From a virus, in IMG/VR virus record IMGVR_UViG_3300031576_000037, positions 1 to 64,000 of that record: a stretch of 64,000 nt of DNA; one strand, 5' to 3'. Within the stretch, counting starts at the first letter, position 1, and the number at the start of each line of letters is the position of its first letter. The translations under genes and the position numbers were made by a program. A model generated the notes under the pieces. The model ran no database searches. It was not told the origin of the DNA and saw only the letters and a program-made list of their open reading frames with translations. Shown piece by piece: positions 4,287 to 58,988 of the stretch.

Positions 4287-4310
4287 TGCTCATTACCTCA
4301 TGCGGGTAAG

Positions 4311-4519: not shown

Positions 4520-6151
4520 ATGCCGGACAATTGGAAGAATAAACTCTATTTCGGGGATAATCTCGGCATCCTGCGCGAGCACGTAGACGATGGGAGCGTA
4601 GACCTGATCTACCTTGACCCGCCTTTCAATTCAAACGCCAGTTACAATGTCCTTTTTCAAGAGAAGAGCGGGAAGAAATCCGCCGCACAGATCACGGCCT
4701 TTGAAGATACATGGCAATGGGGAATGGAGTCAGAGGAAGCTTTCCATGACATCGTAACCAGCGGACGGCGGAAAGTCGCAGACCTGATGCAAGCCTTAAG
4801 ATCGTTTCTGGGGCAAAGTGACATGATGGCATATCTGGCGATGATGACCCCGCGCCTGGTTGAACTGCACAGGACGTTGAAACCAACGGGCAGTCTATAT
4901 CTACATTGTGATCCAACGGCCAGCCATTACTTGAAGATTGTTTTAGATGGCGTGTTTGAAAAAGGCGGGTTCCGCAACGAAATTATCTGGCAGCGCACGA
5001 ATGCTCACAACATGCGAACAAAGGGATATGTCCGAGCGAATGACACTATTTTTTTCTATACGAAAACTGACCAATTCACCTTTAACGCACAATACACCGA
5101 ATATGGAATCGAACAGCTACGTAGGTTTAAGCCGGATGAAACCGGACGACTCTATAAAGCTGAAAATATGACGTTCTCAAATCCCAACCCAAACCGACAG
5201 TTTGAATGGAGAGGGGCACAACCCCCGCCAAATCGGTCATGGGGAGCCTCTTTAGAGCAGCTAGAAAAGTGGTACGCCGAAGGGCGCATTTTGTTAAAGA
5301 GAGACGGAACTCCGCGCCTAGATGGTTTGAAGATTTACCTAGACGAAACCAAAGGAAAGCCCCTTACTACCAATTGGACAGACATTGATAGAGTCAGCAA
5401 TACATCAGGGGAGCGTCTAGGCTATCCCACACAGAAGCCGGAAGCGTTGCTTGAGCGCATCATCCACGTCAACAGCAATGAAGGCGACGTTATACTAGAC
5501 CCATTCTGCGGATGCGGGACAGCCATAGCCGTCGCTGAGCGTCTGCATCGTTGTTGGATTGGAATTGATGTGACGCATCTGGCAATCACGCTTATTCGTC
5601 ATCGGCTTCAAGACGCATTTCAATCCGAACTCTCACCCTATGAAATCATAGGCGCGCCAACCGATACGCCGGGCGCAGAAGCATTGGCGCAGGTTGACCG
5701 CTACCAATTCCAATGGTGGGCATTGGGTTTGATCGGCGCGATGCCCGCGCAGGATAAAAAGAAGGGCGCAGATAGCGGCATAGACGGGTTCATCAATTTT
5801 TTCGAGGAGAAAAGCGAGAAGGCAAGGAAGATCGTTGTCCAGGTCAAAAGCGGGCATGTAAAAGTCTCAGACATCCGAGACCTGAAAGGGACAATGGAGC
5901 GCGAAAAAGCCGCAATCGGCGCTTTCATTACGCTGGAAACGCCAACCAAGCCAATGTTGACGGAAGCGGCGGCGGCTGGCTTCTATGAATCGCAATGGTT
6001 CGCTGGCCAGCAATTTCCGCGCTTACAAGTGCTCACTATTGAAGAGCTACTGAACGGCATGACGCTCAAATATCCACGCTTGCACGTCGAAACATTCAAG
6101 CGGGCAGAACGTCAAAGCAAATCGAAGACAAAACAAGAGAAGCTGTTTTAG
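4520..6151 (+). CDS. DNA methyltransferase fused to Mrr-like nuclease domain
   Basis: 543 residues from ATG 4520, which has AGAGG eight bases upstream; an earlier ATG at 4466 is possible. Motif IV (YLDPPF, about residue 31) precedes motif I (DPFCGCGTA, about residue 325), the order of beta-class amino-methyltransferases, which methylate adenine N6 or cytosine N4. The C-terminal ~150 residues contain SGIDGFI, then VVQVKSG, a D...QxK arrangement like Mrr-type restriction nucleases. This could be a single-chain modification/restriction protein; alternatively the C-domain is a DNA-binding relic. A paralogue runs off the right end of the window. Confidence 0.85.
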   Translation: MPDNWKNKLYFGDNLGILREHVDDGSVDLIYLDPPFNSNASYNVLFQEKSGKKSAAQITAFEDTWQWGMESEEAFHDIVTSGRRKVADLMQALRSFLGQSDMMAYLAMMTPRLVELHRTLKPTGSLYLHCDPTASHYLKIVLDGVFEKGGFRNEIIWQRTNAHNMRTKGYVRANDTIFFYTKTDQFTFNAQYTEYGIEQLRRFKPDETGRLYKAENMTFSNPNPNRQFEWRGAQPPPNRSWGASLEQLEKWYAEGRILLKRDGTPRLDGLKIYLDETKGKPLTTNWTDIDRVSNTSGERLGYPTQKPEALLERIIHVNSNEGDVILDPFCGCGTAIAVAERLHRCWIGIDVTHLAITLIRHRLQDAFQSELSPYEIIGAPTDTPGAEALAQVDRYQFQWWALGLIGAMPAQDKKKGADSGIDGFINFFEEKSEKARKIVVQVKSGHVKVSDIRDLKGTMEREKAAIGAFITLETPTKPMLTEAAAAGFYESQWFAGQQFPRLQVLTIEELLNGMTLKYPRLHVETFKRAERQSKSKTKQEKLF

Positions 6152-18000: not shown

Positions 18001-18130
18001 GCCTGAACACGTCACGCGCCAGCTCGCGCGGCACGCCGAGCCGGTCGGCCTCCGTGTCCACGCGCTCTTTGGCGTAGTCAACGAGGAACTGCGACGGTCT
18101 GGGCCGTTTTGGTTGTTGTCCCTGTGGCAT
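9077..18130 (-). CDS. Giant internal virion / large polyvalent protein with lytic transglycosylase
   Basis: 3017 residues. Residues ~15-130 are a lytic transglycosylase SLT domain: catalytic Glu in FRRESGH, then GAMQLMPGTA and AAYNAGPGAV. Long low-complexity Ala/Gln/Pro/Glu linkers follow. Near residue 1880 is a conserved segment (LFIEEIQSDWHQAGRKWGY) and near 2080 ITPAMRDSVMQGQPLF, both typical of phage large polyvalent proteins. Around 2325 an HExxH motif (YHELSHN) suggests a zinc peptidase-like domain. The last ~400 residues resemble the LPD38-type C-terminus. Likely packaged in the capsid and ejected with the DNA to breach peptidoglycan. Last gene of the late operon. Confidence 0.88.
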   Translation of the reverse strand: MPQGQQPKRPRPSQFLVDYAKERVDTEADRLGVPRELARDVFRRESGHSPAVISGKRRSSAGAIGAMQLMPGTAKELKVDPEDLDQNITGGLTYLKRQLDDFGGDWTKAKAAYNAGPGAVRKYGGVPPYAETRAYAQPQSPTEFLKEMEAASATTEPRDGLMRFWEQPPSVPSPKPSAQPYSASPAVPLTPARKPKPVSPPQTAAPDLMRWYEQQPSAPPITAKPSPITASESSPWIPRSVSEPTNQFLRAAGTGLARIPTGVAELADLIDRRIGTPVLSAIGLGGQGDELRLAEKVRPVMRPVEQAIEAATPIDPSNQSWVTAKIPRAAGSLVPFVAGGLAGGGAKTAAMLGAAMNAGEIAREMENAGVDPAKRDRAIAMAGATGLTEALGIGRMLNKFGLKQAFIHRAVNIMEEAGQEGLQEYLNNINAAMVGGYDPSRPASRGVIEAAVLGGILGGGMQGLSAARAGAQRQQDIQAVRAEPQTPLTRLPIRPVAPERAGVETRITNLPQTTRTAEFRQQAEAAGAPDVIPTPTEFLAQQEAAQPPAQAGTTGRLTQAAERLAALGRKPQAETAEPAAQPGIRVYEPGETPETPAKGRALTTVTVDGVKHFVEHPSNVSRSAAIELAKQQITAQPPVTAPLEAPERAQPARGTIQAETEPLTGVVAPQTGEAAPTTTGALRAAADDAKIEAAEHERAGRFAEAARAYELAHRHLKSLRRTMGRPQSPEAVAAQDAIDREIGTAAGNRGQAMTNARRAAAQQRETQRVQQRMEAAPTRELTVPQPQTPPSAPLLGSVMNPAGGVPAAPESPSGKFGELVRQQEAAQQAQPQPRRKPTGQLSPIEYLKRKTGGKGIRVSDAGERAMLGAKEAGIVGLVRREGGVPLSDVQVMLDEGGFTLPDGRPFTDRSVTENDVLDYLRESGKEGRVDTRGLERRLTEEEAEYYGNLPPEAGPSQPLPSSMENVTAGPQTPAQGITEPSEISEGTTGALREVGDFFDQAKQAETAAETQSAVERRAQTLVERQGQQIARRTQEREAAHKGVFGKFAERAHKMNTGRTLPALAEHPELRELLDLPPMPSYYLSEEGGAVNPEWTTAAQDTLNALAEKGDKPRSSELDLDDLRGAYRRLQIAARQRGGEISDSLKQTFRETVADFLESQNSYQNFIVDGRIDNLLRTLDNATQPQSKREQARLKDSVAAIAKDHGLSQHFADKWFTQAVDEARGRAGRRGAEAQAGDNQGRDRRIDERDVSVSAQEERGTGTFGKPEPTQPEGRKIQHTQFGAVTEAPDQSGVAKGHLRVLDGEGEPHVIQNPRTAGNQNAAFVKERETERKVAAKEPWEMSRDEYISERRRQGSTLARLDGQQHENMVAAAVGRGENVPHRVLSRYPNIKQHPQYREAYEERTGQPVPQAARRQTLSPEQKRQLSPYGVFKHILAADMEVNDWWSTPNYNKTELLNAFGAQALRRGVENALRKGRPVPAEVLADYPDLQPKTRAETKAAAETEADVEKQAPTPEQERANAILISDEIPAAPQSGQPFAHGDKVEWTEGKTTLRGTVRGYDRRGKVMVYDPSDGATVKVDEGGLRKREQGDEPEAAAGARKPLPERERAPGFYSQLERVIEQKMPNKASGAQALAIATNPQNGVKKEELDWLGLAEWLRPQANVTKQDVLDFVRANQVTVQEVTHGIRAHQWHQDGDTWYNEDNSIAIRRGNNVWQTAGIALRGEPLETGSLEEAQQVADRATSGDTKYSQLTLPGTEEGSYRELLLTMPEIRPEQPPERITQLPDGYRVGVDSSQPPNARWHVLPPEQVHGRPFYGSHPSEEAAVASALQRLNDQQQEEWEKSRPSFQSPHWGESNVLAHIRFNERTDAGGKRTLFIEEIQSDWHQAGRKWGYAPGVAARIKSINQRLEEIQDRFDKIPPIEEREKLATEQRELVSEQAKLEAGQARGSVPDAPFKTSWPELAFKRMLRYGAENGYDKIAWATGETQAERSDLSKQVDEVLWTPASKTIRAIKDGQVLISKHLQDESGLPDVVGKEVAERLLRQQPDQFATRQYGEGQDTLALGGVDLKVGGEGMRGFYDQILPSFVNRYVKKWGIKVEQGSVPTERIESAAGEWVVIKENQIVNRFGADEAAAKQYARQVDGTEMREPEQRYAAVHSVTITPAMRDSVMQGQPLFQREPRTSDFQPAPLSDAQSATDIATNTRTRSSKSESRANVIYGNEQAHFWIDRAEHLLQLRKAKERGETYQHTPIYGANLSADEAYEFADAIRTEKNSWRNKPEAERAAADAQIEALARALEETADQYGRVLYIAGTRGFSETRRTVYHELSHNAERQYKTTQGWFDAQPQADKLSQALARSGYHPDQYTSETIAHVLGGQYDKLGLTLDEATSWLNEYMENISFRTERRAPESFEPLHATPEMRAALRQAKEKHGRRPEYRPGGETIQGIVQRNAAAGTGGAVAGRPLRSRGAGEEGTKEGRETGAAETPRTAGADKAGTRPIFSLGALPGEAPGGQVLGAFGGVFQGRKTRPKAPLPKVPLPTGWDIAQWAQGMSAKLANTTFTPKQNQKLNDLINEVIDATNTNDGARLFAAREEMARSFGEKFKAGDIAAAPRTFLGGLDLSFAFRQGGFYNLPGLVFRPVKTARLLRSGLSAMKSGNFARLNAEIGADPRAVEMRKAGLHLINQVKVEHGNRLSDREDGYISRAMQNIPLYKQTERGNTTLLDMLRAAKYNEHADYMARRGATFDSNPEAYKQMADWVNISTGRGSFGDYEGAVPFLANFLWSPRWVMSRIQMLNPARYVKADPAFRGKMLGDLAQHVLVLGAALGAAAAAGAAGFPITVGSDPDDADFGKVVINGRYHYDLTGGMQQYAVFATRMFQAAKARATAKTERDRRAAIGHMINTMKRFARGKSSPVAGLAADWLTGENYRGKPVTMTDALLERATPIMARDLYDAYRTAGGGALGAAWAIPAFGGFGVSSYQAGAKPKRTTQSPVGLEKPKRTAPSAKRAPVGLEGK

Positions 18131-22462: not shown

Positions 22463-25400
22463 CTAATATCCCTTCGCCAGTCCAGTCCCGCGCCAGCGTT
22501 GCTTGTTGCCTAATCGCGCCTGGCGGCGCCCCTTAGCGCGCCGGATTCTGTCTCCGATGAAAAACAGTAGTAACAGCCAGGTCCAATCAAGACCAAATCC
22601 CTTTATAAATCCCACCACTCGCCACCTATTTGCGCTACTGCTGTAAATACCAGTCATGTAGTCACACTTTAAAGCGGTGATTGTAAGCGTTATCCCGGTT
22701 ATGTCCGTTCCAAAGATAAATCCTCCTGCGCCGCTCGCCAACGTAATCGTTCTGCCCCCAGTCGGATCCTGGCAGAACTCCCACACCGCCTGCTGGTCGG
22801 CCACCGGGCCGATAGGGGCATCGAGCGTTCGGTTGCCGGCCAACGTTGCCTTGAACCTGTTGCCCAGGCTGGCGTCCGTGGCGATGTTCGCAGCGTCAGT
22901 CAGCGTAACCGGAGTCGAGGAGGTCGCCTTGTTGAATAGGATCGGCCCGTCGAACTGCGACTTCCCGGCCTTAACCCAGAACGCCAGCGGGGTGGTCAAC
23001 GTCATATTCGCTCCCGCTGCTGGCGCGTTGACGATGGTGAAGCTGCTCGCGGTTGTGATCGTCTCGGCGGCAGTCGCTGAGTACGTCACGCGGGGCACGC
23101 TGATCTCGCTCTGCTCGGTGAATGCGCCACCACCGGAAGTGAATTGCCTGGTCGCGGTCGCGCCGAGGACGATCCCCTGCGCTTCAGTGTCGGCGGCCAG
23201 GGCAGTGTCAGCCGGAGTAGTGATCTTGAAATGGAACGGCGAGCCGGAGGAACGGGCGGCAGGCGATATAGTGGTCGCGCCGAATGCCTCTGTCACCACC
23301 ACATTCGTCGTCCCGCGCTGCACTCGCAGCAAATCGGCGGTCGCGGCGGAATTGCCGCTCACCAACAAGGGAACGTGACCGGCGGCGCTGGCCAGTGCGC
23401 GGATCGCGTAGCTGTTCGTGATAGTAGCGTTCGTTCCGGCGGCAGGCGATGAGACATCGAGCGTAATAGCATCGGTCAGGGTGCTGGCGGCGACGAAGCT
23501 GTAGGTCGCGCCCTGAATTCGCATCCCCCGCTGCAACGTCAGCGCGCCAGTCGCGTGCTGCACGTCACGAGCGAGATTGATGTTCACGTCAACCGCTTCC
23601 GCTGAGGCGGTCAGGCCAGTGTGAGCCGGAGCGGTCAGCGTCCAGACCGTCGGAGTGCCAGAGGCAGCGGCGTCGCTGTTGAAAGTGGCGTAGCCGGGCG
23701 AGGTGAGCGACAGCCGCGAAGTCGTATTCGTCATGATGTCGAGCGTGTGAGCGGTCTGACCGCCTAATAGCAATGACGACCCGTCGCTGGTGAAAATGCC
23801 CTGGATCACGCTGCTGTTGGAGTCAACCCGAATGCCATTATTGCTGGCGTCGGCCCGGACATGGAGCATCGCCGCCGAGTCGGTGTTGACGCCGATCCCC
23901 CCGGTTCCCTTCGGGTTGATTCTGATATTCTCATTCGCCCCGCTGGAAAGCGCCGTCAACGTTACTCCACTGCCAGCCGCATTTCCCGTTACGCTCAAAC
24001 CCGTCGCCGCGCTGCCTACATTGGCGACGACCCTGAAAGCCGGATTCGTGTTTCCATTCGGCCCCACAGCCAAGGCAGCGGCTGCGGCGCTGCTGACGGT
24101 CTGTGCGGCGGTAAACGTTTGGGCGAGATTGGTTCCGGCCAGCGTATAGTCGGCATCCTGCGGCGTCAGGACTCTAATGGTAGCCGTCGTCAGCCCGTCC
24201 ACCTCGAAGCGGATTTCCTTTGTGCCATCAGTTGAACCTTCAACCAACGACACAGTATCCGTGAACGGCGGCGATGTCCCGCAGCCGGCGCAGGATGTAA
24301 CGGTCAGCGCCCCCGCCTTGTCCACCTTGAACTTGCTCACCCCGCCGACCTGCAAGTCCATCAACAATGAAGCGGCGGCGCTCGCCGTGTCAGTGATATT
24401 GGTCTTGATAGCGGTGAACGTTACGCCCGCGCTGTTCCACGTCTGCGTGGCGTCAAACAGGCGGGTATCCGCCGTCACCGTGCCGCCGGTGACAAACAAT
24501 TTGTGCGTCGCGTCAGCCGCCCCGCCAATCCCCAGCCGCGCAAACTGCGGCGTCGAGGCGGTCGCTATATCCTGGGGAGTCGAGAGCGTAATTGACCCCG
24601 CTCCATTGGTGACGGTGATTTGATTCGCTGTGCCGGTCAATGCCGCGAGGGTATAACCGGAGCCATTGCCGATAAGTAATTGACCGTTCGTTGGCGTTCC
24701 GGTCAGACCCGTGCCGCCACTGCCTATCGGCAGCGCGCTTCCCAGGGTGAGCAGCCCTGCTGAATCAAGTGTCAGCTTCGCCGCGCCGCCATAGCTGGCT
24801 TTGATCAGGTTGGTGGTGACGCCGGTCGTCGCAGTGTTCGTGGTATCTACCGCTAAGACGTTCAGGGTAGTGGTGGTGTTCGAGACGCCAGTATTGAGTG
24901 TGGGCTTGATGAGGACACCGCTGAACGTCCTCGTGTTAGTGTCGTTCTTAGTGAGAGAGAACGTCGCGTCCATCGCCCCGACGGTGTTGTCAGCGTCAGT
25001 CAAGATCGTCTTGCCGGTCAACTCCACGCCGGCTGCCGGTGCAGCCTCACCTAATCCCAGGGCGGCGAATTGTGGCGTCGCGGCGGTGTGGATACTCTGC
25101 GGCAGGCTCAGCGTCGGGTTGCCCGCGACACCATCGCCGTTCGACACGTTGACCTGGTTAGCCGTACCGGTGATTGTCCGCGCTGCGCCTGTTCCCGCGC
25201 CGGTTCTCGCCCACAAGCCGTTAGTCGCGTTGTCACCGAGCGCCGTCAGGTCACTGTCAAGGCGAGCGTTCGCTACTACGCCGGTCGTGATACTCGAACC
25301 ATTGAGCGCAGTCAGGGATGCGCCGCTTCCGCTGAAGAGTTGCGCCGTCACGGTTCCGGAGTCGGTGACGGTCAGCCGGTCAGCGAAAGCAGTGGCGTCA

Positions 25401-28400
25401 ATCCGGCCCTGGAGCGTCCAGGTAGATGCTCCGGCATTGGTAGTGACATCAACGAAGGTCTTCCAATCTGCGCTATGACCCGCAGTATCGAATGAAGTCC
25501 CGGTAAGGATCAGATTGTGAGAGTCGCGGGTTCCCGCCGCGCCTGGCTGGGCAATCGTAATGGTATAAGCATCTGCCGGTGTAGTCCCGACGTTATGGGT
25601 ATGAGCGCCAGTCCAGGCGAAGGCAGTAGCCTGATTGACGGAGAGGGTGCGATCTGCGCTGAGATCGCCGCCACCGATTATGCCGGTTCCATTGGAGATG
25701 GTTCGGCCTGTACCCAGAACAGTTCCGCCTCCGCTCGGAGCCGTCCAAGCGGCGTCAGTGGCATTGCTGCCCAGGTAGGTATTGGCGGCCCCAATCGCCA
25801 GGCGCTGCCAGGTCGGAGTCGCGCTCTGACCGGTAATCAGGTCGCCACGCACCACGGTCGCTGCGGTAGAGTCGGTATGGGTGGCGGACAGGATATTATG
25901 GCTCGTTCCTCCACACCCGATACATGAGGTAACGGTGATGTTGCCGGCCTTATCGGCCTTGAACTTGCTAACCCCTCCTACCTGCAAATCAATCAATAAT
26001 GAAGCGGCAGCAGAGGCAGTATCAGTGATGTTCGTCTTGAGGGCGGTGAAGGTGACTCCGGCGCTGTTCCACGTCTGAGTCGCGTCGTACAGATGAGTAT
26101 CCGCTGTGACTGTACCGCCTGTAACGAATAGCTTGTGGGCAGCATCTGCCGCGCCCCCAACGCCGAGGCGGGCGAACTGCGGCGCGCTGGCTGTGGCGAT
26201 GTCCTGCGGCGTCGAGAGGACGGGATTTCCGGCTACCCCGTCGCCATTCGAGACATTCACCTGATTAGCCGTGCCAGTGATAGTCCTGGCTGCGCCCGTC
26301 CCAGCTCCCGTCCGCGCCCACAAGCCGTTGGTAGCATTGTCGCCAAGCGCGGTTAAGTCGCTATCCAGCCGCGCATTGGCTACTGTCCCGGTCGTTAGGT
26401 TTGAGGCATTAAGGGCCGTCAGGGCCGAACCATCCCCGCTGAAGCTTGTGGCGGTCACGGCCCCCCCAGAGGAGACCAGGAATTGTTGCACTCCCCCATA
26501 AGCCAACCTGATGAGGTTGGTGGTTAGCCCGGTAACAGCCGTGTTCGTAGTGTCCACGCTGACGATATTCAGCGTGGTGGTAGTGTTCGATGCACCGGTG
26601 TTCAGCGTGGGCTTGATGAATACTCCGGCGAATGTCCGCGTGTTGGTGTTGTCTTTGGTGAGGGAGAAAGCAACATCCGCTCCGCCAACTGTATTGTCGG
26701 CGTCCGTGCTGATTGTCTTGCCGGTGAGTTCCAGCCCGGCGGCGGGCGCAGCTTCTCCCAGCCCCAACGCCGCAAACTGCGGAGTGGCAGCGGTGTGGAT
26801 GTTTTGCGGGGTTGAGAGCGTAACGTTGCCGTTCGCCCCGCCATCGGTAATGATAACCTGGTTCGCCGTGCCAGTCAGCACCCGCTCGGCTGAGAGCGTG
26901 GCATCCAGCCCCAGCACAACGTAAGAAGCCCCGGTCGGCGCTCCCCCGCCCGCGCCGATGCAATCCACCGTCGCTCCATTCTCCCGGCATTTGAATTTAT
27001 TGGCGGTTGAGTCGTACCAAACGTCGCCATTCAGGAGCGATGTGGGAGCGCCCGCCTGTGCGCCGATGTTCAGCCCGGCATTCGTGGCGTTCGGATTGAA
27101 GGTCTGCCGCGCCCCGTCTGCAAAGTCCAGCGCACCAGTGTCATTGATTGCCAATCGCTCAGTGAAGGCTCCGGCGTCGAGGTTCGACATGATCCGCCAC
27201 TTCGATCCCCCAGCGTTAGTTAGAGCCTGAGCATAGTGCAGCCAGATAGCCGAATGTCCGACGGTATCGAACGAGGTCGCCTTGACCCTGAACGTATGGC
27301 TATCCCGCACCCCGGCGACTCCGGGTTGGGCGATGTCGAGCAGGATGGCGTCGCCGGGCGTTGTGCCGGGATTGAAAGTGTGTAAGCCGGTCCAAGTCGG
27401 CAACAGGCTCTGAAGAATGGCGGGCGCGGCATCCGAACGCATCGCTGTTGTTGCCGAACCAGTGATGGCCGTAGTTGTAACGTTGGCCGAAGGCCCAGCG
27501 AAACCGCTGAATCCCCCCGGGAGATCAGCAGCTTGAATCGCCGAAGAGACGAAATTAGTCCCATCCCCGCGAAGGTAATTCCCACTGGCAGCCAGACTGT
27601 TCACCTGGAAACCGGTAGTCGCGTTGGCTACACCGCCGGAAGTTACGATGAATTGCACCACGCCTCCGTAGCGGAGGTGAAGAAGATTCGTCGTTACCCC
27701 GGTGGTCACGGTATTGGCAGTATCGACTGCGAGGACATTGAGCGTGGTATTGGCGTTGCTGGCCCCGGCGTTGATTGTAGGCTTGATGAACTCGCCGAAG
27801 TAGGTTCGGGTGAGGGCATCGTTCTTGGTTAAGCTGAATAGCGTGCTGAGACCGGCGATGCTGTTGTTGGCTTCAGTGTCAATGGTTTTACCAAGCAGGT
27901 CTATTCCGGCTTCGGCGGGCGCGGTAGTCCCTGCTCCCAGGCGTCCGACCTGGAAAGCAGCCGAAGTGTGCAGGTCTTGCGGCGCGCCGACCGTGATGTT
28001 CCCATTCGCCCCGCCGTCAGTCAGTATGATCTGATTCGCCGTGCCGGTCAGGACTCTCTCAGCGGTCAATCCAGCGTCGAGCGCCAGCGTTACGTATTGC
28101 GCGCCGGTCGGCGCGCCGCCGCCCGCACCCGACAGGTCGCGCCACGCCCCGTTCAGGTAAGCCCACGCCTTGTACTGTCCATTAATGGTATCGGATTCCA
28201 GGACAAAGGCATTTGCGCTGTCATAAGTCGTGGGCACGCCTGTCGGGGTGTCGCTCGTGCGCGGCAGATAGACAAAACCATCTGTCGCAGTGGTCGCCAG
28301 CGCATCTTTGGCGAAAACCGAATTGAGCTTGCCGCCCGACGGGGCGAACCGCGCCTCAGTCGAGCCGACCAGGTTCAGCCGCAGCAAATCGCCGGTCGCC

Positions 28401-31400
28401 GAAGTCGTGTGATCTATGACCTGGCCGATGTGGGCGGCGTTGTTCGGCTTGATTCGCAGGCCGACCGAGCGGGTCAGCGTGGCGTTCGTTCCGGCGGTGG
28501 GAGTCTCAATCTCGACGTTGATTGCGTCAGTCACGGTGGACGCCGCGACGAAGCCGAGCGTCCGGCCCCGGAAGCGCACGTCGCGGTTGAGCGTGATCGC
28601 GCCGGTCGCGTACTGTTTTGTGCCCGATAAATCGAAGAGCAGGTCGGTGTCTTCCGCGCCCGCCGCCAGGGTAGTGTGGGCGCCGCCCGTGACAGTGAGG
28701 GCGACCGGAGAGCCGGAGGCCGCTGCTGCCTGGGTCAGCGTAATCGCCGAGGTCGAAGGCTGCGCCAGGATCGAATCGCCGGTGGCCGTAGCCGAGGTGA
28801 ATTTGGGGATTTGATTCGTCGTGCCGGAGCCGGAGATGCTGCCGAAATTCGTATAAGCGCCGCTATTGGCCGAGAATTGCCACGCCTGCGTCGAGGCGTT
28901 GTAGGTAATCCGGCCCCGATTGGCCGGGGCGACGGCGGCAGATTGCCCGGCGGCCTGCTCGACGTAGGCGTCGCTGGCTGCGCCGATCAGGGTCAGGCTG
29001 GTCGGATCAATCGCCCCACCGACAGTCAGCTTGCCGGTCACGTTGGCGTTGCCGGTGATCGTCACCGTCGAGCCGGACTCGCTCACCAGCGAATCGCCGA
29101 TGGCCGTTGCGCTGGTGAACTTGGGCAGCTTGCCCGCCGTGCCGGAGCCGGTGATGCCGCTGGCGGAAGTCGCCATATTCGAGACCACACGCCAATCTCC
29201 CGCGCCGCTCTCGTTCGGAACCAGGATCACGGCCTGCCCGGTGACGTTCAGCACAAACGTCGAGCCGTTGACCGTGCCGCCGCTACCTGCCGCCAGAGTA
29301 ATATTGTTGGTTCCGGCTGCTGCAATGTCCTTGATGATCAACTGCTCGCCGACCCGGTAAAGCCCCGGCCAGGGCAGCGTAATCGTGCAGGGCGCGGCGC
29401 AACTCGATTCGACGTAGCGCAGTCCCGTCCGGGCATAAGTCGAAGTGGACGTGACGGTGACGCGGGCGAAGCCGCCATCCGAGCGTCCGAGCGGCGTGAC
29501 CCGCGTGTTGGTCGTGTCGTAATAAGTAGTGACGCGCGCCGCCGAGCCGCCAGTCAGCACGCGCGGGCCCAGTCCCTCAGCTACCAGCGGCGGCTGGTCG
29601 TTCGAGTGGATAGCTGAGGCGTTCGCGTAAGAGGATTCAGGCCCGTCGAAGATGCTCGTCTCATCTATCGTGCCGCGCGAGAAATAGGCCGGGAATGAAG
29701 CCGAATCCACGTCGTAATCCGCCACCCGCTTGCCCGAGGTAGCTCCTCCTGACGGATAGAATGTGCAGCCCGTGCAGGAGAAATTCGAGTTGCGATAGGC
29801 TTGAATTCCGGTCAGCGTCCAGTTCTCGACGTTGCACTGGTAGCAATACACCGCAGCGGCCTGATCGGTCGTATCGCCGTCTACGCCGTTCTTTTTACCT
29901 ATCGCCATCCAGCGGGTATTGGCCACCGAGCCGTCAATCCCGTTGCAGCTCTCGCAGTAGACATCGCCGCCCTTGACCCGGTAGCCCGCGAGCAGCGTGC
30001 CGCCCGCCGCGTGCACATAGATGTCGCGCAGGTAAATGCCGGGATGGTCGTTGGCGTCAATCAGGATCGGGTAATTGACGTTCCCGCTGAAATCCATCTT
30101 CTCGAAGGCCGATGAGAAGGCTTTGGTAATATAGAGGCCATAGCTGCCGGTGTCGGTAATAGACACGTCAGAGACGAAGAAGCCGGAGTAATCAGCCGTG
30201 CCTTGCAGCGACAATCCAATCTGACTCGCGCCGGTCGCATTGCCGTCAATCGTCAAGCGCCGAATCGAGGAATCGGAAGCTGTCGCGGTGACGCCGATAA
30301 TGCTGGCATTCGACGTGGACGTGATGATCGTCTTGGCCCGCCCATCGCCCACCAGATGGGTGTTGCCCGCCATCGTCAGGCCCGTCACCAGGTACGTGCC
30401 CGCCGAGACATAACATTCCTTGCCGCCTGCCGCGGCCGCCGCTGTGATGCAATTTTGAATTGCCGTCGTGTCGTTCGTTGTCCCATTACCCACCGCGCCG
30501 TAATCCAGTCGGGCGTTGAGCGCCTGCCGGATGTTCGAGGTCGGGAAAGCCGTGTTCCAGGAAAGCGTGCCGGCGCCGTCGTTGGTCAATGCGCCCGAAG
30601 CATTCGAGGCCGGCCAGGTGTAATTCAAGCTGCGGATCGAGGCGCTACCATCGCTGCGCACGCGGAAGAGCGCCGAGCCGGTCGAATCCGTCGCCCGCAG
30701 GAAATCGCCGGTCTGCGAGGCGATTCCCTTGAGCGTCAACATATTGGTATTGACCGCGCGGGTTGCTGAACCCGACAGGATAATCTGGTCGGTATCTATC
30801 CGCAGGCGCGAGAGAGCCTGCGTGGTAAAAATGTGGATATTGTCTTGGAAGACGTACTCAGGATTGCCGGGGTCGGTGGCTATGTCACGGAAGAGGTCAG
30901 TGGCGGTCGCCAGGGTATTCGAGGCCGAGAACAGCGCGAGATAATTGGTGCTGCCGGAACCGGTGAGCTTGTTGTTGAAGGTCGTCCAGTCGGCGGATGA
31001 GAGCGCGCCCCGGACAGTCGCGGACGCGGTCGGGAAATTGAAGGTGTGGGTCGTGCCGGACGATGAGATATTGAAGTCGGAACCGCTCGTGCCCGGCGCG
31101 AAGGTCTGAGTTGCGCCGGTCAAGCCATTGAGCGAGGTAATCCCGCCGCCCCCGCCGCCTCCGCCCGTTACGATGGTGACGACGCCGCTGCCGTTGTCGG
31201 TCAGGGTGCCGTTGCTGACCTGCAAGGTATTGACGCCCGTGATCAGCGGCGAACCGTCCAGCTCCTTGATGACGCTGAGGTATTTTACATCAGACTGCGA
31301 GCGAGTGTAGGCGTTGACGTCCTGGGCGATGACCGCCGTCGAGTTGTACGCGCACAGATCAGGCCAGTTGGTCGCCGATGGAATGGCGGGCACAGCAAAG

Positions 31401-32026
31401 GAAGAAAAGCAGTCGTAGAACGAGATGCGCGAGCCGCTGTCCCGATAGAACGCGGCGATATATCGCGCCTGCTGATTGGTCGGGCTGTCAACCGTCGCGT
31501 CCAGCGCAAGCTGGGGGATGAAAAGCGTCTCAATGCCCGACACGTTCAGGATGGACGCGGCGACTCGCCGATACCACGCGCCCGAATCCGGCGCGCCGGT
31601 CTGCACGATGCAGGTCGTGGTCGAGCCGGAGCAGACGCCGAGCGGACGGAACGGCCCGGCGGCGGGATCAACGTACAACCTCAGCTCCACCCACTTGCGC
31701 CAGATGGCTGTCACGCTTGCGCTGGTTGCGCCCGTGTAAACGCCGGTCAGCGTGGCGCTTGACACGCTGGTAACATAGGCGACGGTGTAATTTATCCCGT
31801 TCAGCGTGATGGTAAAGCCGCCCTTGCCTACCCAATTCGAGCGAAAGGCCGCCGCGCTCGTGATCGTCGCACTGTTGTTCGTGGCCGAGACCGTCAGCGT
31901 GACATCATTGCCGATGTTCTGCGCGCTGAAATTCGGGATTTGCGACGCGGAGATCGTGACTTCGGTGGCCGATGCTCTAACCGTCAAAGCGCAGAGTAGC
32001 GCACAAAGAAGGAATAGCTTTTTCAT
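22463..32026 (-). CDS. Giant tail fibre / adhesin with signal peptide and C-terminal anchor
   Basis: 3187 residues from ATG 32026; a longer ORF to 32092 lacks a plausible start region. Residues 1-20 (MKKLFLLCALLCALTVRASA) are a clean signal peptide. About 495-700 is a right-handed beta-helix of the pectate-lyase-3 type (DYGAVGNGTTNDTTAIQ; LVGDGRAKTII). Most of the rest is beta-rich repeats sharing LTGTANQ, TPQDIATAS and TGLW-type segments. The C-terminus ends with a Trp/Leu/Phe membrane helix (DWTWLLLLFFIG) and an Arg-rich tail, like a surface anchor. Probable host-attachment or glycan-degrading fibre. Confidence 0.8.
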   Translation of the reverse strand: MKKLFLLCALLCALTVRASATEVTISASQIPNFSAQNIGNDVTLTVSATNNSATITSAAAFRSNWVGKGGFTITLNGINYTVAYVTSVSSATLTGVYTGATSASVTAIWRKWVELRLYVDPAAGPFRPLGVCSGSTTTCIVQTGAPDSGAWYRRVAASILNVSGIETLFIPQLALDATVDSPTNQQARYIAAFYRDSGSRISFYDCFSSFAVPAIPSATNWPDLCAYNSTAVIAQDVNAYTRSQSDVKYLSVIKELDGSPLITGVNTLQVSNGTLTDNGSGVVTIVTGGGGGGGGITSLNGLTGATQTFAPGTSGSDFNISSSGTTHTFNFPTASATVRGALSSADWTTFNNKLTGSGSTNYLALFSASNTLATATDLFRDIATDPGNPEYVFQDNIHIFTTQALSRLRIDTDQIILSGSATRAVNTNMLTLKGIASQTGDFLRATDSTGSALFRVRSDGSASIRSLNYTWPASNASGALTNDGAGTLSWNTAFPTSNIRQALNARLDYGAVGNGTTNDTTAIQNCITAAAAAGGKECYVSAGTYLVTGLTMAGNTHLVGDGRAKTIITSTSNASIIGVTATASDSSIRRLTIDGNATGASQIGLSLQGTADYSGFFVSDVSITDTGSYGLYITKAFSSAFEKMDFSGNVNYPILIDANDHPGIYLRDIYVHAAGGTLLAGYRVKGGDVYCESCNGIDGSVANTRWMAIGKKNGVDGDTTDQAAAVYCYQCNVENWTLTGIQAYRNSNFSCTGCTFYPSGGATSGKRVADYDVDSASFPAYFSRGTIDETSIFDGPESSYANASAIHSNDQPPLVAEGLGPRVLTGGSAARVTTYYDTTNTRVTPLGRSDGGFARVTVTSTSTYARTGLRYVESSCAAPCTITLPWPGLYRVGEQLIIKDIAAAGTNNITLAAGSGGTVNGSTFVLNVTGQAVILVPNESGAGDWRVVSNMATSASGITGSGTAGKLPKFTSATAIGDSLVSESGSTVTITGNANVTGKLTVGGAIDPTSLTLIGAASDAYVEQAAGQSAAVAPANRGRITYNASTQAWQFSANSGAYTNFGSISGSGTTNQIPKFTSATATGDSILAQPSTSAITLTQAAAASGSPVALTVTGGAHTTLAAGAEDTDLLFDLSGTKQYATGAITLNRDVRFRGRTLGFVAASTVTDAINVEIETPTAGTNATLTRSVGLRIKPNNAAHIGQVIDHTTSATGDLLRLNLVGSTEARFAPSGGKLNSVFAKDALATTATDGFVYLPRTSDTPTGVPTTYDSANAFVLESDTINGQYKAWAYLNGAWRDLSGAGGGAPTGAQYVTLALDAGLTAERVLTGTANQIILTDGGANGNITVGAPQDLHTSAAFQVGRLGAGTTAPAEAGIDLLGKTIDTEANNSIAGLSTLFSLTKNDALTRTYFGEFIKPTINAGASNANTTLNVLAVDTANTVTTGVTTNLLHLRYGGVVQFIVTSGGVANATTGFQVNSLAASGNYLRGDGTNFVSSAIQAADLPGGFSGFAGPSANVTTTAITGSATTAMRSDAAPAILQSLLPTWTGLHTFNPGTTPGDAILLDIAQPGVAGVRDSHTFRVKATSFDTVGHSAIWLHYAQALTNAGGSKWRIMSNLDAGAFTERLAINDTGALDFADGARQTFNPNATNAGLNIGAQAGAPTSLLNGDVWYDSTANKFKCRENGATVDCIGAGGGAPTGASYVVLGLDATLSAERVLTGTANQVIITDGGANGNVTLSTPQNIHTAATPQFAALGLGEAAPAAGLELTGKTISTDADNTVGGADVAFSLTKDNTNTRTFAGVFIKPTLNTGASNTTTTLNIVSVDTTNTAVTGLTTNLIRLAYGGVQQFLVSSGGAVTATSFSGDGSALTALNASNLTTGTVANARLDSDLTALGDNATNGLWARTGAGTGAARTITGTANQVNVSNGDGVAGNPVLSTPQDIATASAPQFARLGVGGAADAAHKLFVTGGTVTADTHLYDATQTWNSAGVTFTALKTNITDTASAAASLLIDLQVGGVSKFKADKAGNITVTSCIGCGGTSHNILSATHTDSTAATVVRGDLITGQSATPTWQRLAIGAANTYLGSNATDAAWTAPSGGGTVLGTGRTISNGTGIIGGGDLSADRTLSVNQATAFAWTGAHTHNVGTTPADAYTITIAQPGAAGTRDSHNLILTGTSFDTAGHSADWKTFVDVTTNAGASTWTLQGRIDATAFADRLTVTDSGTVTAQLFSGSGASLTALNGSSITTGVVANARLDSDLTALGDNATNGLWARTGAGTGAARTITGTANQVNVSNGDGVAGNPTLSLPQSIHTAATPQFAALGLGEAAPAAGVELTGKTILTDADNTVGAMDATFSLTKNDTNTRTFSGVLIKPTLNTGVSNTTTTLNVLAVDTTNTATTGVTTNLIKASYGGAAKLTLDSAGLLTLGSALPIGSGGTGLTGTPTNGQLLIGNGSGYTLAALTGTANQITVTNGAGSITLSTPQDIATASTPQFARLGIGGAADATHKLFVTGGTVTADTRLFDATQTWNSAGVTFTAIKTNITDTASAAASLLMDLQVGGVSKFKVDKAGALTVTSCAGCGTSPPFTDTVSLVEGSTDGTKEIRFEVDGLTTATIRVLTPQDADYTLAGTNLAQTFTAAQTVSSAAAAALAVGPNGNTNPAFRVVANVGSAATGLSVTGNAAGSGVTLTALSSGANENIRINPKGTGGIGVNTDSAAMLHVRADASNNGIRVDSNSSVIQGIFTSDGSSLLLGGQTAHTLDIMTNTTSRLSLTSPGYATFNSDAAASGTPTVWTLTAPAHTGLTASAEAVDVNINLARDVQHATGALTLQRGMRIQGATYSFVAASTLTDAITLDVSSPAAGTNATITNSYAIRALASAAGHVPLLVSGNSAATADLLRVQRGTTNVVVTEAFGATTISPAARSSGSPFHFKITTPADTALAADTEAQGIVLGATATRQFTSGGGAFTEQSEISVPRVTYSATAAETITTASSFTIVNAPAAGANMTLTTPLAFWVKAGKSQFDGPILFNKATSSTPVTLTDAANIATDASLGNRFKATLAGNRTLDAPIGPVADQQAVWEFCQDPTGGRTITLASGAGGFIFGTDITGITLTITALKCDYMTGIYSSSANRWRVVGFIKGFGLDWTWLLLLFFIGDRIRRAKGRRQARLGNKQRWRGTGLAKGY
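24270..26230 (-). repeat. Long near-identical internal repeats in the fibre gene
   Basis: About 300 bases at 24270-24560 are repeated at 25915-26230 (offset near 1.64 kb), encoding AAHKLFVTGGTVTAD, TQTWNSAGVTFTA and LQVGGVSKFK. A second segment type (encoding TTTLN...TTNL) occurs near 24810, 26515 and 27690. The copies differ mostly at third codon positions, so the protein repeats are under selection while the DNA drifts. Confidence 0.8.
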
Positions 32027-32051
32027 TGAATCAACAAGTACGCAGGGAAAC

Positions 32052-32336
32052 TTAGGCTGCGATTTCCTCCGGGAATACCAGCCTCGCCGCATCTATGGAG
32101 AGCAACGTCGGTTCAGGCACGCGCGCCAGATTGATGCTGGCGACCTGCACGAGCAAAGCTGGCAGTTGCTGTTGCCCATTGACACCGGCATTCAATGGAG
32201 TCGTCTGAAACGCCACCCCGGATTCCCAATAGCCTTCCGTAATGCCCTGCTCACGCAAAAGCAGTTCGGTGATCTCGGTCAGGCTAAATGAGTAGCGGTT
32301 GATCTCAGGCACGATCAGCGTTTCCCTTTCCGCCAC
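32052..32336 (-). CDS. Small conserved phage tail-region protein
   Basis: About 94 residues from GTG 32336; a start at 32369 would add 11 residues and overlap SNase further. Contains INRYSFSLTEITELLLREQG and a beta-rich C-terminus. It has the look of a widespread phage hypothetical encoded near fibres. Start uncertain; function unknown. Confidence 0.55.
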   Translation of the reverse strand: MAERETLIVPEINRYSFSLTEITELLLREQGITEGYWESGVAFQTTPLNAGVNGQQQLPALLVQVASINLARVPEPTLLSIDAARLVFPEEIAA

Positions 32337-47958: not shown

Positions 47959-48204
47959 CTATTCGAATTTGAAAAAATGCCTGAACTGCTCTTTCAGACC
48001 GAAATAGATTACCACAATCTTCAAGATCGCCAGCCCGTGTCTCACGATCTTTGTGACGGCCTCGGCGCGCGTCATCTCCGGCGCCATCAATGGCGCAGCT
48101 ACATTCACCGTCTCGGATGCTGTCCGGTCATCCACGTAATGCGCATGAGTCACGCTATACGTCCTCGTTGCCGGGATATTATCCGTCACGCCGTCTGGCC
48201 CCAT
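47959..48204 (-). CDS. Small protein overlapping terminase end
   Basis: 81 residues from ATG 48204, overlapping the terminase stop by 19 bases. The last ~25 residues hold a hydrophobic helix (GLAILKIVVIYFGLK) and charged/aromatic tail; possibly membrane-associated. Function unknown. Confidence 0.5.
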   Translation of the reverse strand: MGPDGVTDNIPATRTYSVTHAHYVDDRTASETVNVAAPLMAPEMTRAEAVTKIVRHGLAILKIVVIYFGLKEQFRHFFKFE

Positions 48205-50069
48205 ATCCGCTCAAACTCCCCTTTCATCTCTTCCTCAATCGCCGCCTCAGCCTCCGCTACTGCCCTGACTCGCGCCATCTCCCAGCCGTCCGTCCATGCG
48301 GCTTGGCCGGATTCGAGCGCGGAGAGGCGGAGCCGACCGGCGAGGGCGGCTTCGATCTGCTCCTGGCGGCTCAGCGGCGCTGCATCAGCGCCCCAATCTG
48401 CGCAAATCATTCTCGTGCTATCGACCGCATCATCCTCCGCCTTCATCGGCAGATTGAGCGATACCCCGCCCACCCCTGATACATCAGGCCGATATCGCCA
48501 CCCCAGCGTCTGCCGCCGGTGCGTCATCAACCCCCGATCGTCGCGCGGGGCCAGCAGCTGATCATCGTCAACCACGTCAAACCAGCCCGGCGCGCCCAGC
48601 CGGCAGTTCCCGTCCGGCAATCTCTCGTCGGCGAAAAACGGATGCGGCCTGGCTCGATCCACCCGCAGGAAATGCCGCCACTGGCTGATGCCCGCCGTCT
48701 TCGCCGAGTCGCAGGACTGGAACGGCAGATTGTATTTCTCGCGGTAGGTCTTGCGCTCCGACAATGCCTCGTGCGACATCCGCCAGCGAACGACCTGCTC
48801 ACCCTCCCACATTACCCGCTTCACCGTCTCCGCCTGCCCGTCCACGCTGACGCTGGTGAATACGAGGCCCCGATACCGAAACCGAGCGCCCGGCAACCGT
48901 GAGTTCATTGCCGCCGTCGCAATCCACGTCCACGCGCTCAGGTGTCCGGCAGTGAAGCCGACGTCGTGCCCGGCCTCGCACAGCCAGTGCTCCGGGATGC
49001 GGCGCTCGCCGAAGACCGCCTCAAACTGCGACCACGTGATGACGTGCACAGCCTCGTCGTATTCGGGAATAACTCTTCCCTGCTCGCTGGCCGCGAAATC
49101 GTGCTGGTACTCCGCCAGGAAAGCTTCGAGGCCGGAATTATCGAGGAATTTCTGACAAGCTGCCAGGTCAATATCCGGCCAGGTCGGACGCCCTTCCACG
49201 ATCACGCTGCGCTGCCCCTCATCCGTCTGCCGCGCTTCGATCCGCAGTCCCTCGAATGCCGGGAATGGCCCCGACTCGCGCCGCACCGTCAGCACACTCG
49301 TCCGGCGCGTCAGGATTTGATTGAAGACGCTGTTGCGGTGAATCAGGTTCTGCGCGCCGAGGATGACCGTCTCGCGCGTGCCGGCTGGAATAATTGAGCG
49401 GGCAATCGTTTCCAGCTTGTTCTGGACGATCAGCGGCGAGTCGGCGTGGTCGTCTATATCATCGAGCGCAATCAGAGTCGGTCGTGCATCGCCCACGCGC
49501 CCGCCGCGTACTCCCACGTCCAAGCCCACTGGCCTGATGGCCCAGCCGCCGCGCGTCCGCAGGAAATCCTGTCGCCAGCCGTATTGATTGCCGTGCTTGC
49601 CGACCTGCGGATTGGCCAAGTGCGGGTAGTAACGGGCGACATCCTCGCTCTCCAACCGCTCGCGGATCGCCGCGACGTGCCCCTCGGCCATTGCCTGCGT
49701 GCCGGAGACATAGAGCACGTAGCCCTTGCCGATCAACGCGCCCTCGGCGATGGCCGCCCACTCGACCGCACTGGATTTGCCCATCCCCCGCGCCCAGATC
49801 GCCAGGAATGCCTGCTCACTATTGGTGATCGGCGCACCCGACCGGCGCCGCTGAATGTGCGACCAGAACCAGTCCCAGAACTCGGCGTGGAATGGCGCGA
49901 AGCTGCCGGTGAACGTCTTCGGCCCGACCGCCCGCAGCCAGGTGCGCCAATCTTTTTCAATCTCTGCGCCGGGATGTGGGGGCTTGCGATTGCGCGCCGC
50001 CACCAACTGCAGATGCTCTTGGCGGAGGGCGGCGAGGCGGGACTGGCTTACCTGGCTCGTTTCGGCCAT
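48186..50069 (-). CDS. Terminase large subunit
   Basis: 627 residues. Walker A (IWARGMGKSSA, about residue 90-100) and Walker B (PTLIALDDID) define the packaging ATPase; a coupling region and RNase H-like nuclease domain follow, with acidic candidates in GHDVGFTAG and ICADWGAD. It translocates DNA into the prohead through the portal and cuts concatemers. A 46-residue ORF overlaps its start. Best anchored gene of the late block. Confidence 0.9.
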   Translation of the reverse strand: MAETSQVSQSRLAALRQEHLQLVAARNRKPPHPGAEIEKDWRTWLRAVGPKTFTGSFAPFHAEFWDWFWSHIQRRRSGAPITNSEQAFLAIWARGMGKSSAVEWAAIAEGALIGKGYVLYVSGTQAMAEGHVAAIRERLESEDVARYYPHLANPQVGKHGNQYGWRQDFLRTRGGWAIRPVGLDVGVRGGRVGDARPTLIALDDIDDHADSPLIVQNKLETIARSIIPAGTRETVILGAQNLIHRNSVFNQILTRRTSVLTVRRESGPFPAFEGLRIEARQTDEGQRSVIVEGRPTWPDIDLAACQKFLDNSGLEAFLAEYQHDFAASEQGRVIPEYDEAVHVITWSQFEAVFGERRIPEHWLCEAGHDVGFTAGHLSAWTWIATAAMNSRLPGARFRYRGLVFTSVSVDGQAETVKRVMWEGEQVVRWRMSHEALSERKTYREKYNLPFQSCDSAKTAGISQWRHFLRVDRARPHPFFADERLPDGNCRLGAPGWFDVVDDDQLLAPRDDRGLMTHRRQTLGWRYRPDVSGVGGVSLNLPMKAEDDAVDSTRMICADWGADAAPLSRQEQIEAALAGRLRLSALESGQAAWTDGWEMARVRAVAEAEAAIEEEMKGEFERIWGQTA

Positions 50070-52585: not shown

Positions 52586-52601
52586 TCAATGCCCCGCTGC
52601 C

Positions 52602-52706
52602 GAGCGGCGCTATCCGGGAGCATCGATCAAAACTGCAATTTATCGCGCCCTCGGCTTCGAACCGCCGGAGCACGGCGGGAAGCGGGAGGGCGCAGGGAGA
52701 AAAGAA
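52602..52706 (+). repeat. Leader repeat, copy A
   Basis: About 105 bases repeated at 58141-58250, starting GAGCGGCGCTATCCGGG. It contains the hairpin element 52645-52693 and ends with AGGGAGAAAAGAAAT, a ribosome site. An insertion near the start of copy B shifts the frame between copies. Confidence 0.85.
52645..52693 (+). ncRNA. Structured leader element A (conserved hairpin)
   Basis: Nested stems GCGCCCTC/GAGGGCGC (8 bp), GCTTC/GAAGC (5 bp) and CCGCC/GGCGG (5 bp) with a 7-base loop. All 36 paired bases are identical to element B at 58189-58237; differences fall only in the bulge and apical loop. A ribosome site follows at once, so it probably affects translation or mRNA stability. Confidence 0.6.
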
Positions 52707-52943
52707 ATAACCAAGAGCAAGCAAGTAAGATTCTTACAACTACAAAGAGAGGTCGCCAGCGGCAAGCAAGATATTGACCTGGCGGATTTCGCGCGACGTT
52801 TTGCCGCGCGCGTCAAGGATGCACCGGTGACCATCAGTTTTGATCCCGAAAACTGGACTTGGGATGACGTCGGACACTACTTAGGGTACGGCGTGCTAAG
52901 CGTCGCAGATATTCGCTCAATGATCCACGGCGGACTCAACTAG
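52707..52943 (+). CDS. Small protein after leader element A, AUA start
   Basis: 78 residues if read from ATA 52707, which sits exactly where copy B has the ATG of its gene. The peptide (DLADFARRFAARVKDAP, then SFDPENWTWDDVGHYLG) looks like real coding sequence. Either AUA is used, or the gene lost its start by a G-to-A change. The open frame also extends upstream through the leader (GGKREGAGRKE), but without a standard start codon. Confidence 0.5.
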   Translation: MTKSKQVRFLQLQREVASGKQDIDLADFARRFAARVKDAPVTISFDPENWTWDDVGHYLGYGVLSVADIRSMIHGGLN

Positions 52944-54529: not shown

Positions 54530-54949
54530 ATGCGCAAGAAATACAATCCAACCGACGAACAGAAAGCCAAAGCCCAGGCACGCCGCGAGGATTTTCGGAA
54601 ACTTGCCAGGCTGGTTTCCGAGATGACCGACGAGCAGCGATTGGCGATGCTTTCCAGCATCGGCGCAGTTCCAACCTGCGCGGGCCGGGCGTTGTCGCCT
54701 TTCAATTCCTGCCTCTTGCTTCATCAACTCCCTGCCGCATCGCTGGTCGGCGGATTCAATCAATGGAACAAGGTCGGTCGCAGCGTGCGTAAGGGCGAGC
54801 ACGGACTGATGATCTGGATTCCCTGCGCGCAAAAAGTGCAGCAGGAAACGCCGGTCGCCGGCGATCTAACCGAGGACAAACTGCGCTTCGTCCTGGGAAC
54901 GGTATTCGACGTTTCCCAGACCGACGAAATTGCCAGTCACCCCCAATAA
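54530..54949 (+). CDS. ArdC-N-terminal-domain-like antirestriction protein
   Basis: 139 residues. The centre has the hallmarks of the ArdC N-terminal domain: LVGGFNQWNKVGRSVRKGEH, then MIWIPC and FVLGTVFDVSQT. In full-length ArdC this ssDNA-binding domain precedes a metallopeptidase that protects incoming DNA from host restriction; here the protease part is absent. A stand-alone domain would still fit DNA protection or regulation. Converges with the minus-strand gene at 54937, overlapping by 13 bases. Confidence 0.72.
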   Translation: MRKKYNPTDEQKAKAQARREDFRKLARLVSEMTDEQRLAMLSSIGAVPTCAGRALSPFNSCLLLHQLPAASLVGGFNQWNKVGRSVRKGEHGLMIWIPCAQKVQQETPVAGDLTEDKLRFVLGTVFDVSQTDEIASHPQ

Positions 54950-58140: not shown

Positions 58141-58250
58141 GAGCGGCGCTATCCGGGGCGGGAGCCTCAATCAAAACTGCAATCTATTGCGCCCTCGGCT
58201 TCGAGCCGCCAGATCCCGGCGGGAAGCGGGAGGGCGCAGGGAGAAAAGAA
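58141..58250 (+). repeat. Leader repeat, copy B
   Basis: Repeat of 52602-52706 with a short GGCG-type insertion near its start. It ends directly at the ATG of the FGE-like gene and carries hairpin element B. Confidence 0.85.
58189..58237 (+). ncRNA. Structured leader element B (conserved hairpin)
   Basis: The same three nested stems as element A, with bulge GAG (GAA in A) and loop AGATCCC (GGAGCAC in A). The ribosome site AGGGAGAAAAG follows directly and the ATG lies 14 bases after the hairpin. Confidence 0.65.
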
Positions 58251-58988
58251 ATGGACGAGCAAGAGATTGACATGGGTAGCCTGGTCGGGCTAAAGATGAT
58301 CTACATCCCCGGCGGCGAATTCACGATGGGATCGAACGCCAGGGAGGATTCTGGTGCCTATGGCTATGCCTATGCGTATGGCGCCGACGACGCCGACGAC
58401 GACGCCTACGCAATACCAGCGCATCGGGTGGAGATCTCGCCGTTCTGTATTAGTGAGTGCCCGATTACGCAAGCGCAGTATAGCACTATGATCGGAGAGA
58501 ATCCCTCGTATTTCCAAGGCAGCAATCTCCCTGTCGAAGAAGTCCCGTGGGACAAGGCGGCTGAATTCTGCCGCCAACTCTCACAGTTGGAGGGCAGGGA
58601 CTACCGGCTGCCCACTGAAGACGAGTGGGAATGTGCATGCCGGGCCGGTTCGGACGGCTCGTACTGCTTCGGGGATGATCCGGCGCAACTCGGCGAATAC
58701 GCCTGGTACGCCGACAACTCCGGCGACGAGACGCATCCGGTCGGGCAACTGAAGCCGAACGCCTGGGGCTTGTACGATATGCACGGCAACGTTTGGGAAT
58801 GGTGCCAGGACCTGTATGTCCCCGCAGGATCAAGGGACGGCAAGTGTCGCGTCCTGCGGGGAGGTGCCTGGTTCAGCGATCATCTCAGTACACGCGCCGC
58901 CTCCCGCTACGTTGTCAATTCGCTCGCCCGATTCGACTTTAGTTTCGGGTTCAGGGTGGTGAGTGATTTCAGGCTCCGATTATTTTGA
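58251..58988 (+). CDS. Formylglycine-generating-enzyme-fold protein, putative DGR target
   Basis: 245 residues. Classic SUMF1/FGE segments: IPGGEFTMGSN, EVPWDKAAEFCRQL, YRLPTEDEWECACRAG, MHGNVWEWCQDLY and CRVLRGGAWF...FGFRVV. A low-complexity GYAYAYGADDADDDAY loop replaces part of the N-terminus. In diversity-generating retroelements this C-type-lectin-like fold is a common receptor-binding target; its variable residues lie between GGxW and GFRV, as here. Enzymatic FGE cysteines cannot be confirmed by eye. No neighbouring reverse transcriptase. Confidence 0.85.
   Translation: MDEQEIDMGSLVGLKMIYIPGGEFTMGSNAREDSGAYGYAYAYGADDADDDAYAIPAHRVEISPFCISECPITQAQYSTMIGENPSYFQGSNLPVEEVPWDKAAEFCRQLSQLEGRDYRLPTEDEWECACRAGSDGSYCFGDDPAQLGEYAWYADNSGDETHPVGQLKPNAWGLYDMHGNVWEWCQDLYVPAGSRDGKCRVLRGGAWFSDHLSTRAASRYVVNSLARFDFSFGFRVVSDFRLRLF
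58872..58946 (+). other. Putative DGR variable region
   Basis: From the codon after GGAW to that before GFR, almost every position where FGE-type template repeats carry Asn has an NNC or NNT codon here: TTC AGC GAT CAT, AGT, TCC, TAC GTT GTC AAT, GCC, TTC GAC TTT AGT TTC. Codons made by adenine mutagenesis of AAC/AAT keep the final C or T, so this fits. A template repeat is needed for proof and was not found in the window. Confidence 0.5.

What the first reader, a model, noticed from the sequence alone, without database searches (positions are those of the whole stretch)
58251..58988. Phage FGE-fold protein with a DGR-type variable region
The C-terminal stretch between GGAW and GFRV is where diversity-generating retroelements mutagenise FGE/C-type-lectin targets. 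The codons there are nearly all NNC/NNT at positions that are AAC/AAT in known template repeats. If real, this phage diversifies a receptor-binding protein, with its reverse transcriptase and template outside the window.
Basis: partly seen in the sequence, partly recalled or inferred. Interest (0 to 1): 0.75.

Follow-up and report, generated by a model that had tools for sequence, protein, structure and literature searches.

The report
Phage FGE-fold protein, DGR unproven
A phage fragment carries a small, intact protein of the formylglycine-generating-enzyme/C-type-lectin fold; its tail-end segment sits where some relatives are rewritten by a mutating reverse transcriptase, but nothing on this contig (no reverse transcriptase, no template, no known close variants) shows that this one is.

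Summary
The ORF at 58251-58988 is real and encodes a stand-alone 245-aa FGE-sulfatase/C-type-lectin-fold protein (PF03781, E=1.4e-45). The model (pLDDT 87) matches PvdO, the DGR variable protein TvpA, and FGE; it lacks the FGE catalytic cysteines. The flagged segment (RGGAW...GFR, 58857-58955) lies exactly where proven DGR relatives carry their variable region, and 22 of 25 codons are NNC/NNT. But that codon pattern is not diagnostic: homologs from genomes with no detectable DGR reverse transcriptase show it equally. The whole 66,958-bp contig has no reverse transcriptase, no Avd and no template, while the same scan finds perfect templates in relatives L003 and L063. A-tolerant template searches of IMG/VR and GTDB genomes were empty. 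The gene sits in a plus-strand cluster of small genes, opposite the structural genes, which does not suggest a tail receptor-binding protein. The contig is incomplete and no close relative exists, so diversification in trans is not excluded. A precedent emerged: RT-less Microcystis phages carry FGE genes whose variable segments are explained by a template in a Cyanobacteriales genome. Verdict: ordinary phage FGE-fold protein, diversification unproven (about 15-20%).

The parts
58251..58988 (+). Stand-alone FGE-sulfatase / SUMF1 / C-type-lectin-fold protein, 245 aa
   Evidence: PF03781 E=1.4e-45 over residues 15-237; phrog_18508 E=7e-56; AlphaFold2 pLDDT 86.9, pTM 0.86; Foldseek to PvdO 5hha and TvpA 2y3c (TMq 0.78-0.80) and FGEs (about 0.70)
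58857..58955 (+). RGGAW...GFR segment, the position that is the VR in DGR-linked relatives; 22/25 core codons NNY (58872-58946)
   Evidence: codons; homologous to VRs of L003 and L063; no template for it on the contig or in collections
58353..58403 (+). Low-complexity in-frame insertion (Ala/Tyr/Gly/Asp), predicted disordered, absent from most homologs
   Evidence: pLDDT below 50 at residues 35-51; alignment A1
58159..58252 (+). Leader duplicated at 52615-52708 (91% identical); predicted strong RNA hairpin just upstream of the ribosome-binding site and start codon
   Evidence: repeat D6; single-sequence fold -50.2 kcal/mol for 58143-58256 and -44.0 for 52600-52712

Best explanation
A phage-encoded stand-alone FGE-fold (SUMF1-like, C-type-lectin-like) protein, encoded on the accessory/host-interaction side of the genome, that most likely works as a non-catalytic ligand-binding domain (inferred). 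Shown: the fold, intactness, absence of the FGE cysteine pair after the RGG motif, genomic setting, and absence of DGR parts on the contig. Inferred: that its C-terminal loops (RGGAW...GFR) form the binding face, as in the DGR members of the fold, and that the NNY-rich codons reflect the loop composition and codon usage usual for this family rather than current adenine mutagenesis.
For: PF03781 and phrog_18508 matches; confident model matching PvdO, TvpA and FGE; no Cys after residue 199, whereas FGE catalysis needs a Cys pair in the RGG...GFR segment (sequence, alignment to 6MUJ, plus established FGE biochemistry). No RVT_1, no 23S-IVP/Avd-like protein, no hit to a DGR-RT profile; best A-tolerant template candidate has 44 non-A mismatches in 125 nt, where the positive controls give 0 in 60 nt. 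NNY enrichment equal in homologs of RT-less and RT-bearing genomes. Neighbours are small plus-strand genes and an anti-restriction-like protein; structural genes are on the minus strand.
Against: Nearest solved structure by sequence is a DGR variable protein. DGR targets are common in this subfamily, and several RT-less homologs do show variable-segment-limited divergence at first and second codon positions, so absence of RT on the contig does not exclude diversification. The left contig end lies in a 24-bp tandem repeat, so the genome is probably incomplete. The binding role is not shown.
Confidence: 0.7

Rival explanations
1. The segment is a remote DGR variable region: the RT and template lie in the host genome or another replicon and rewrite the phage gene in trans, or the gene was taken from a diversified host gene.
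For: Precedent in the closest annotated phage relatives: Ma-LMM01, MaMV-DC and MaMV-CH01 have no RVT_1 in their full records, yet DC and CH01 differ at 28/75 nt in this segment against 50/663 elsewhere. A template next to a DGR RT in an unnamed Cyanobacteriales genome explains DC (16/28 A sites changed, 5/71 non-A, p=2.6e-7) and LMM01 (16/28, 4/71, p=7e-8, with one codon gap). Own segment has 22/25 NNY codons and no K/E/Q/M/W.
Against: No matching template found for this phage; 28 non-A mismatches to that cyanobacterial template. No bacterial relative above about 50% identity that could be a recent donor (also none at E<=1e-66 in about 790 Acidobacteriota and Planctomycetota genomes, a search without a positive control). 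NNY pattern not diagnostic.
Confidence: 0.17
2. A complete DGR cassette is encoded by this phage in the part missing from the contig.
For: The contig ends at the left in a tandem repeat and is classed as linear; RT-linked relatives L003 and L063 have RT and template within 2 kb of the target.
Against: 58 kb upstream and 8 kb downstream of the gene are covered and contain neither part; DGR parts usually lie within 5-10 kb (PMC7517822).
Confidence: 0.05
3. A catalytically active formylglycine-generating enzyme or related oxidase.
For: Pfam FGE-sulfatase family and fold.
Against: No cysteine in the RGG...GFR segment, where FGE has its catalytic pair; no sulfatase gene was recognised among the proteins annotated (not searched exhaustively). 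EgtB-type chemistry needs an N-terminal iron-binding domain that a 245-aa protein lacks (established knowledge).
Confidence: 0.05

Closest known systems
phrog_18508 stand-alone FGE-fold proteins of Microcystis phages (Ma-LMM01 gp037, MaMV-DC ORF40L; annotated 'kinase')
   Same: about 246-aa single-domain FGE-fold gene among small non-structural genes of an RT-less phage; about 50% identity over residues 55-245. That these proteins belong to phrog_18508 is inferred from the shared 'kinase' annotation.
   Different: their variable segments fit a template in a Cyanobacteriales genome; ours fits no known template; phages not otherwise related in the terminase or the 809-aa gene
TvpA (Treponema denticola DGR variable protein, PDB 2Y3C)
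   Same: same fold, best sequence match in the PDB (E=1.6e-29)
   Different: TvpA belongs to a DGR; no RT or template found here
DGR targets of IMG/VR L003 and L063
   Same: homologous FGE domain (47% and 39% identity), same RGGxW...GFR segment
   Different: they have an adjacent RT and a template with 0 non-A mismatches over 60 nt; this contig has neither. Their targets are about 515 aa with an N-terminal region; ours is FGE-only
PvdO and formylglycine-generating enzymes
   Same: same fold (TMq 0.78 and about 0.70)
   Different: the FGE catalytic Cys pair is absent here

Membership tests
FGE-sulfatase domain family (PF03781) | Profile match above the gathering score over the full domain | tested here: met
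   156.4 bits against cutoff 23.3, profile positions 4-254 of 255
Formylglycine-generating enzyme (catalytic) | Cysteine pair in the C-terminal RGGS...GFR segment | tested here: not met
   segment FSDHLSTRAASRYVVNSLARFDFSF has no Cys; alignment to 6MUJ
Diversity-generating retroelement | DGR-type reverse transcriptase in the element | tested here: not met
   no RVT_1 in the 66,958-bp record; no hit to a DGR-RT profile; contig incomplete
Diversity-generating retroelement | Template repeat matching the VR except at adenines | tested here: not met
   own contig: best 44 non-A mismatches in 125 nt; IMG/VR and GTDB genome patterns empty (exact patterns, so a template with one stray mismatch would be missed)
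Diversity-generating retroelement | Variation concentrated in the VR at template adenines (first and second codon positions) | not testable with these tools
   no close relative of this gene found (best identities about 50%); no reads available
Diversity-generating retroelement | Target with C-type-lectin/FGE fold and VR near the 3' end | tested here: met
   fold; segment ends about 30 nt before the stop codon
Phage receptor-binding protein | Location in the tail module or a virion-attachment domain | tested here: not met
   single domain; among plus-strand small genes, structural genes on the minus strand

The most novel reading that the evidence does not exclude
The phage carries a remote variable region with no reverse transcriptase of its own and has it rewritten in trans by the host's DGR, keeping a diversified FGE-fold binder (a possible decoy or mimic of host FGE-type sensors), as the Microcystis phage data suggest for relatives.
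Probability: 0.15. Interest if true: 0.75.

Novelty: new member of a known kind. Interest (0 to 1): 0.3.

Why it matters
As it stands, this is a further stand-alone phage FGE-fold protein and a caution: NNY-rich codons between RGGxW and GFR are a property of the family, not proof of a DGR. If the in-trans reading were true, phages could exploit a host's hypermutation machine without carrying it, and RT-based DGR surveys would miss such targets; the survey PMC8144416 itself says remote targets are not detected by its approach.

Tried and rejected
NNY fraction as a test: rejected after calibration. Template search on the contig, both strands, five window sizes: nothing. IUPAC A-tolerant template patterns: zero hits in viral contigs (four patterns) and GTDB genomes (one pattern); the control finds the VR itself. 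Avd search: none, but that profile reached its cutoff in no control genome, so it is weak. Nearest phage by terminase (L085, about 47-49% identity) has no FGE match. The best FGE relative, L002 (67-kb contig), shares parts of two giant genes but has no RT and no template within the 17 kb of L002 scanned. Host identification: terminase and the 809-aa gene have no match among annotated phages; the methyltransferase hits rhizobial and other plasmids at under 60%; no close FGE in about 790 Acidobacteriota and Planctomycetota genomes. First comparison to the cyanobacterial template used a frame offset by one base; corrected.

Full report
Observation. The window is bases 1-64000 of a 66,958-bp viral record classed as linear; the rest was fetched as L001. 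ORF 58251-58988 (+) encodes 245 aa with PF03781 at E=1.4e-45 and phrog_18508 at E=7e-56. A model built on 47 sequences has pLDDT 86.9 and pTM 0.86. Foldseek places it with PvdO (5hha), TvpA (2y3c) and formylglycine-generating enzymes; by sequence, TvpA, a DGR variable protein, is the best solved relative (E=1.6e-29).

The flagged segment. Between RGGAW and GFR, 22 of 25 codons end in C or T and none encodes K, E, Q, M or W. In relatives L003 and L063, which are genuine DGRs with an RT and a template matching with zero non-A mismatches over 60 nt, the VR is this same segment.

The codon argument fails calibration. I compared 36 homologous segments from genomes in which no DGR RT was found (E<=1e-15) with 16 from genomes or loci that have one. 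NNY excess over the upstream part is 0.21 and 0.25 respectively (p=0.23). This gene's excess of 0.33 is reached by 17% of the first set. Caveat: many of these genomes are incomplete MAGs, so some 'RT-less' ones may be mislabelled.

No DGR parts. There is no RVT_1, no hit to a DGR-RT profile, no Avd-like protein, and the best template candidate in 66,958 bp has 44 non-A mismatches in 125 nt. A-tolerant template patterns found nothing in IMG/VR or GTDB genomes, while the control found the VR itself in the window. These patterns demand a perfect non-A match, so they are one-sided evidence. The left contig end is inside a 24-bp tandem repeat, so the genome is probably not complete.

Setting. Structural genes (terminase at 48186-50069 by phrog_38) run on the minus strand from about 9 to 50 kb. 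The FGE gene lies in a plus-strand cluster of small genes, with an anti-restriction-like protein at 54530-54949. The protein is a single domain with no tail-attachment part, so a tail receptor-binding role is not indicated. It has no Cys in the segment where FGE keeps its catalytic pair, so a catalytic FGE is unlikely.

Could it be diversified in trans? Absence of an RT on a phage does not settle this. Close pairs of RT-less homologs often differ mainly in this segment, at first and second codon positions (for example L054/L066: 1.6% upstream, 25% in the segment, codon positions 8/10/0). MaMV-DC and MaMV-CH01 differ by 28/75 nt in the segment and 50/663 elsewhere, with no RVT_1 in either phage record. 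A template beside a DGR RT in an unnamed Cyanobacteriales genome (G382, L193) explains the segments of MaMV-DC (16/28 adenine sites changed, 5/71 others) and Ma-LMM01 (16/28, 4/71), and of IMG/VR loci L048 and L057 (12-13 adenine changes, none elsewhere). Whether the phages are rewritten by the host RT or captured already diversified host genes is open. The present phage does not fit that template (28 non-A mismatches) and has no identified host, so the same test could not be made for it. Remote DGR targets are known in bacteria (PMC7517822, PMC10907252).

Verdict. An ordinary stand-alone phage FGE-fold protein, most likely a non-catalytic binder; DGR diversification of this gene is neither shown nor excluded.

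Noticed in passing
L176-L180 (Microcystis phages) and L193: RT-less Microcystis phages (Ma-LMM01, MaMV-DC, MaMV-CH01) carry an FGE gene whose divergence is concentrated between RGGSW and GFR; a template next to a DGR RT in an unnamed Cyanobacteriales genome (G382) explains LMM01 and DC (p about 1e-7), i.e. phage-borne remote variable regions.
   Followed up: partly
L048 9101, L057 10640: IMG/VR contigs with no RT detected on the fetched loci whose FGE variable segments match the G382 template with 0 non-A mismatches and 12-13 adenine changes.
   Followed up: partly
window 58159-58252 and 52615-52708: A 94-nt leader, 91% identical and predicted as a strong hairpin (-44 to -50 kcal/mol over about 113 nt), stands directly before the start of two unrelated small genes; in the second copy the start reads ATA instead of ATG. 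Shorter GC hairpins precede the starts near 57408 and 57799.
   Followed up: partly
window 58353-58403: In-frame low-complexity insertion (GCCTATG and GAC/GCC repeats) in the FGE domain, absent from most homologs; could vary by slippage.
   Followed up: no
window 2933-6151 and 62318-64018 plus L001 1638-2822: Both contig ends carry a P63C-domain protein and a DNA methyltransferase; the methyltransferase genes are inverted repeats (70-92% complementary stretches), with IS1595- and IS1-like transposase genes beside them.
   Followed up: no
window 1-215: 24-bp tandem repeat (CTGAGCCGCGAGCAACTCAGTKGG) running into the contig end.
   Followed up: no
window 9077-18130 and 22463-32092: Two giant minus-strand genes (3017 and 3209 aa), the second with long internal repeats near 24-28 kb; parts shared with the otherwise different contig G001 that also has a stand-alone FGE gene.
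   Followed up: no
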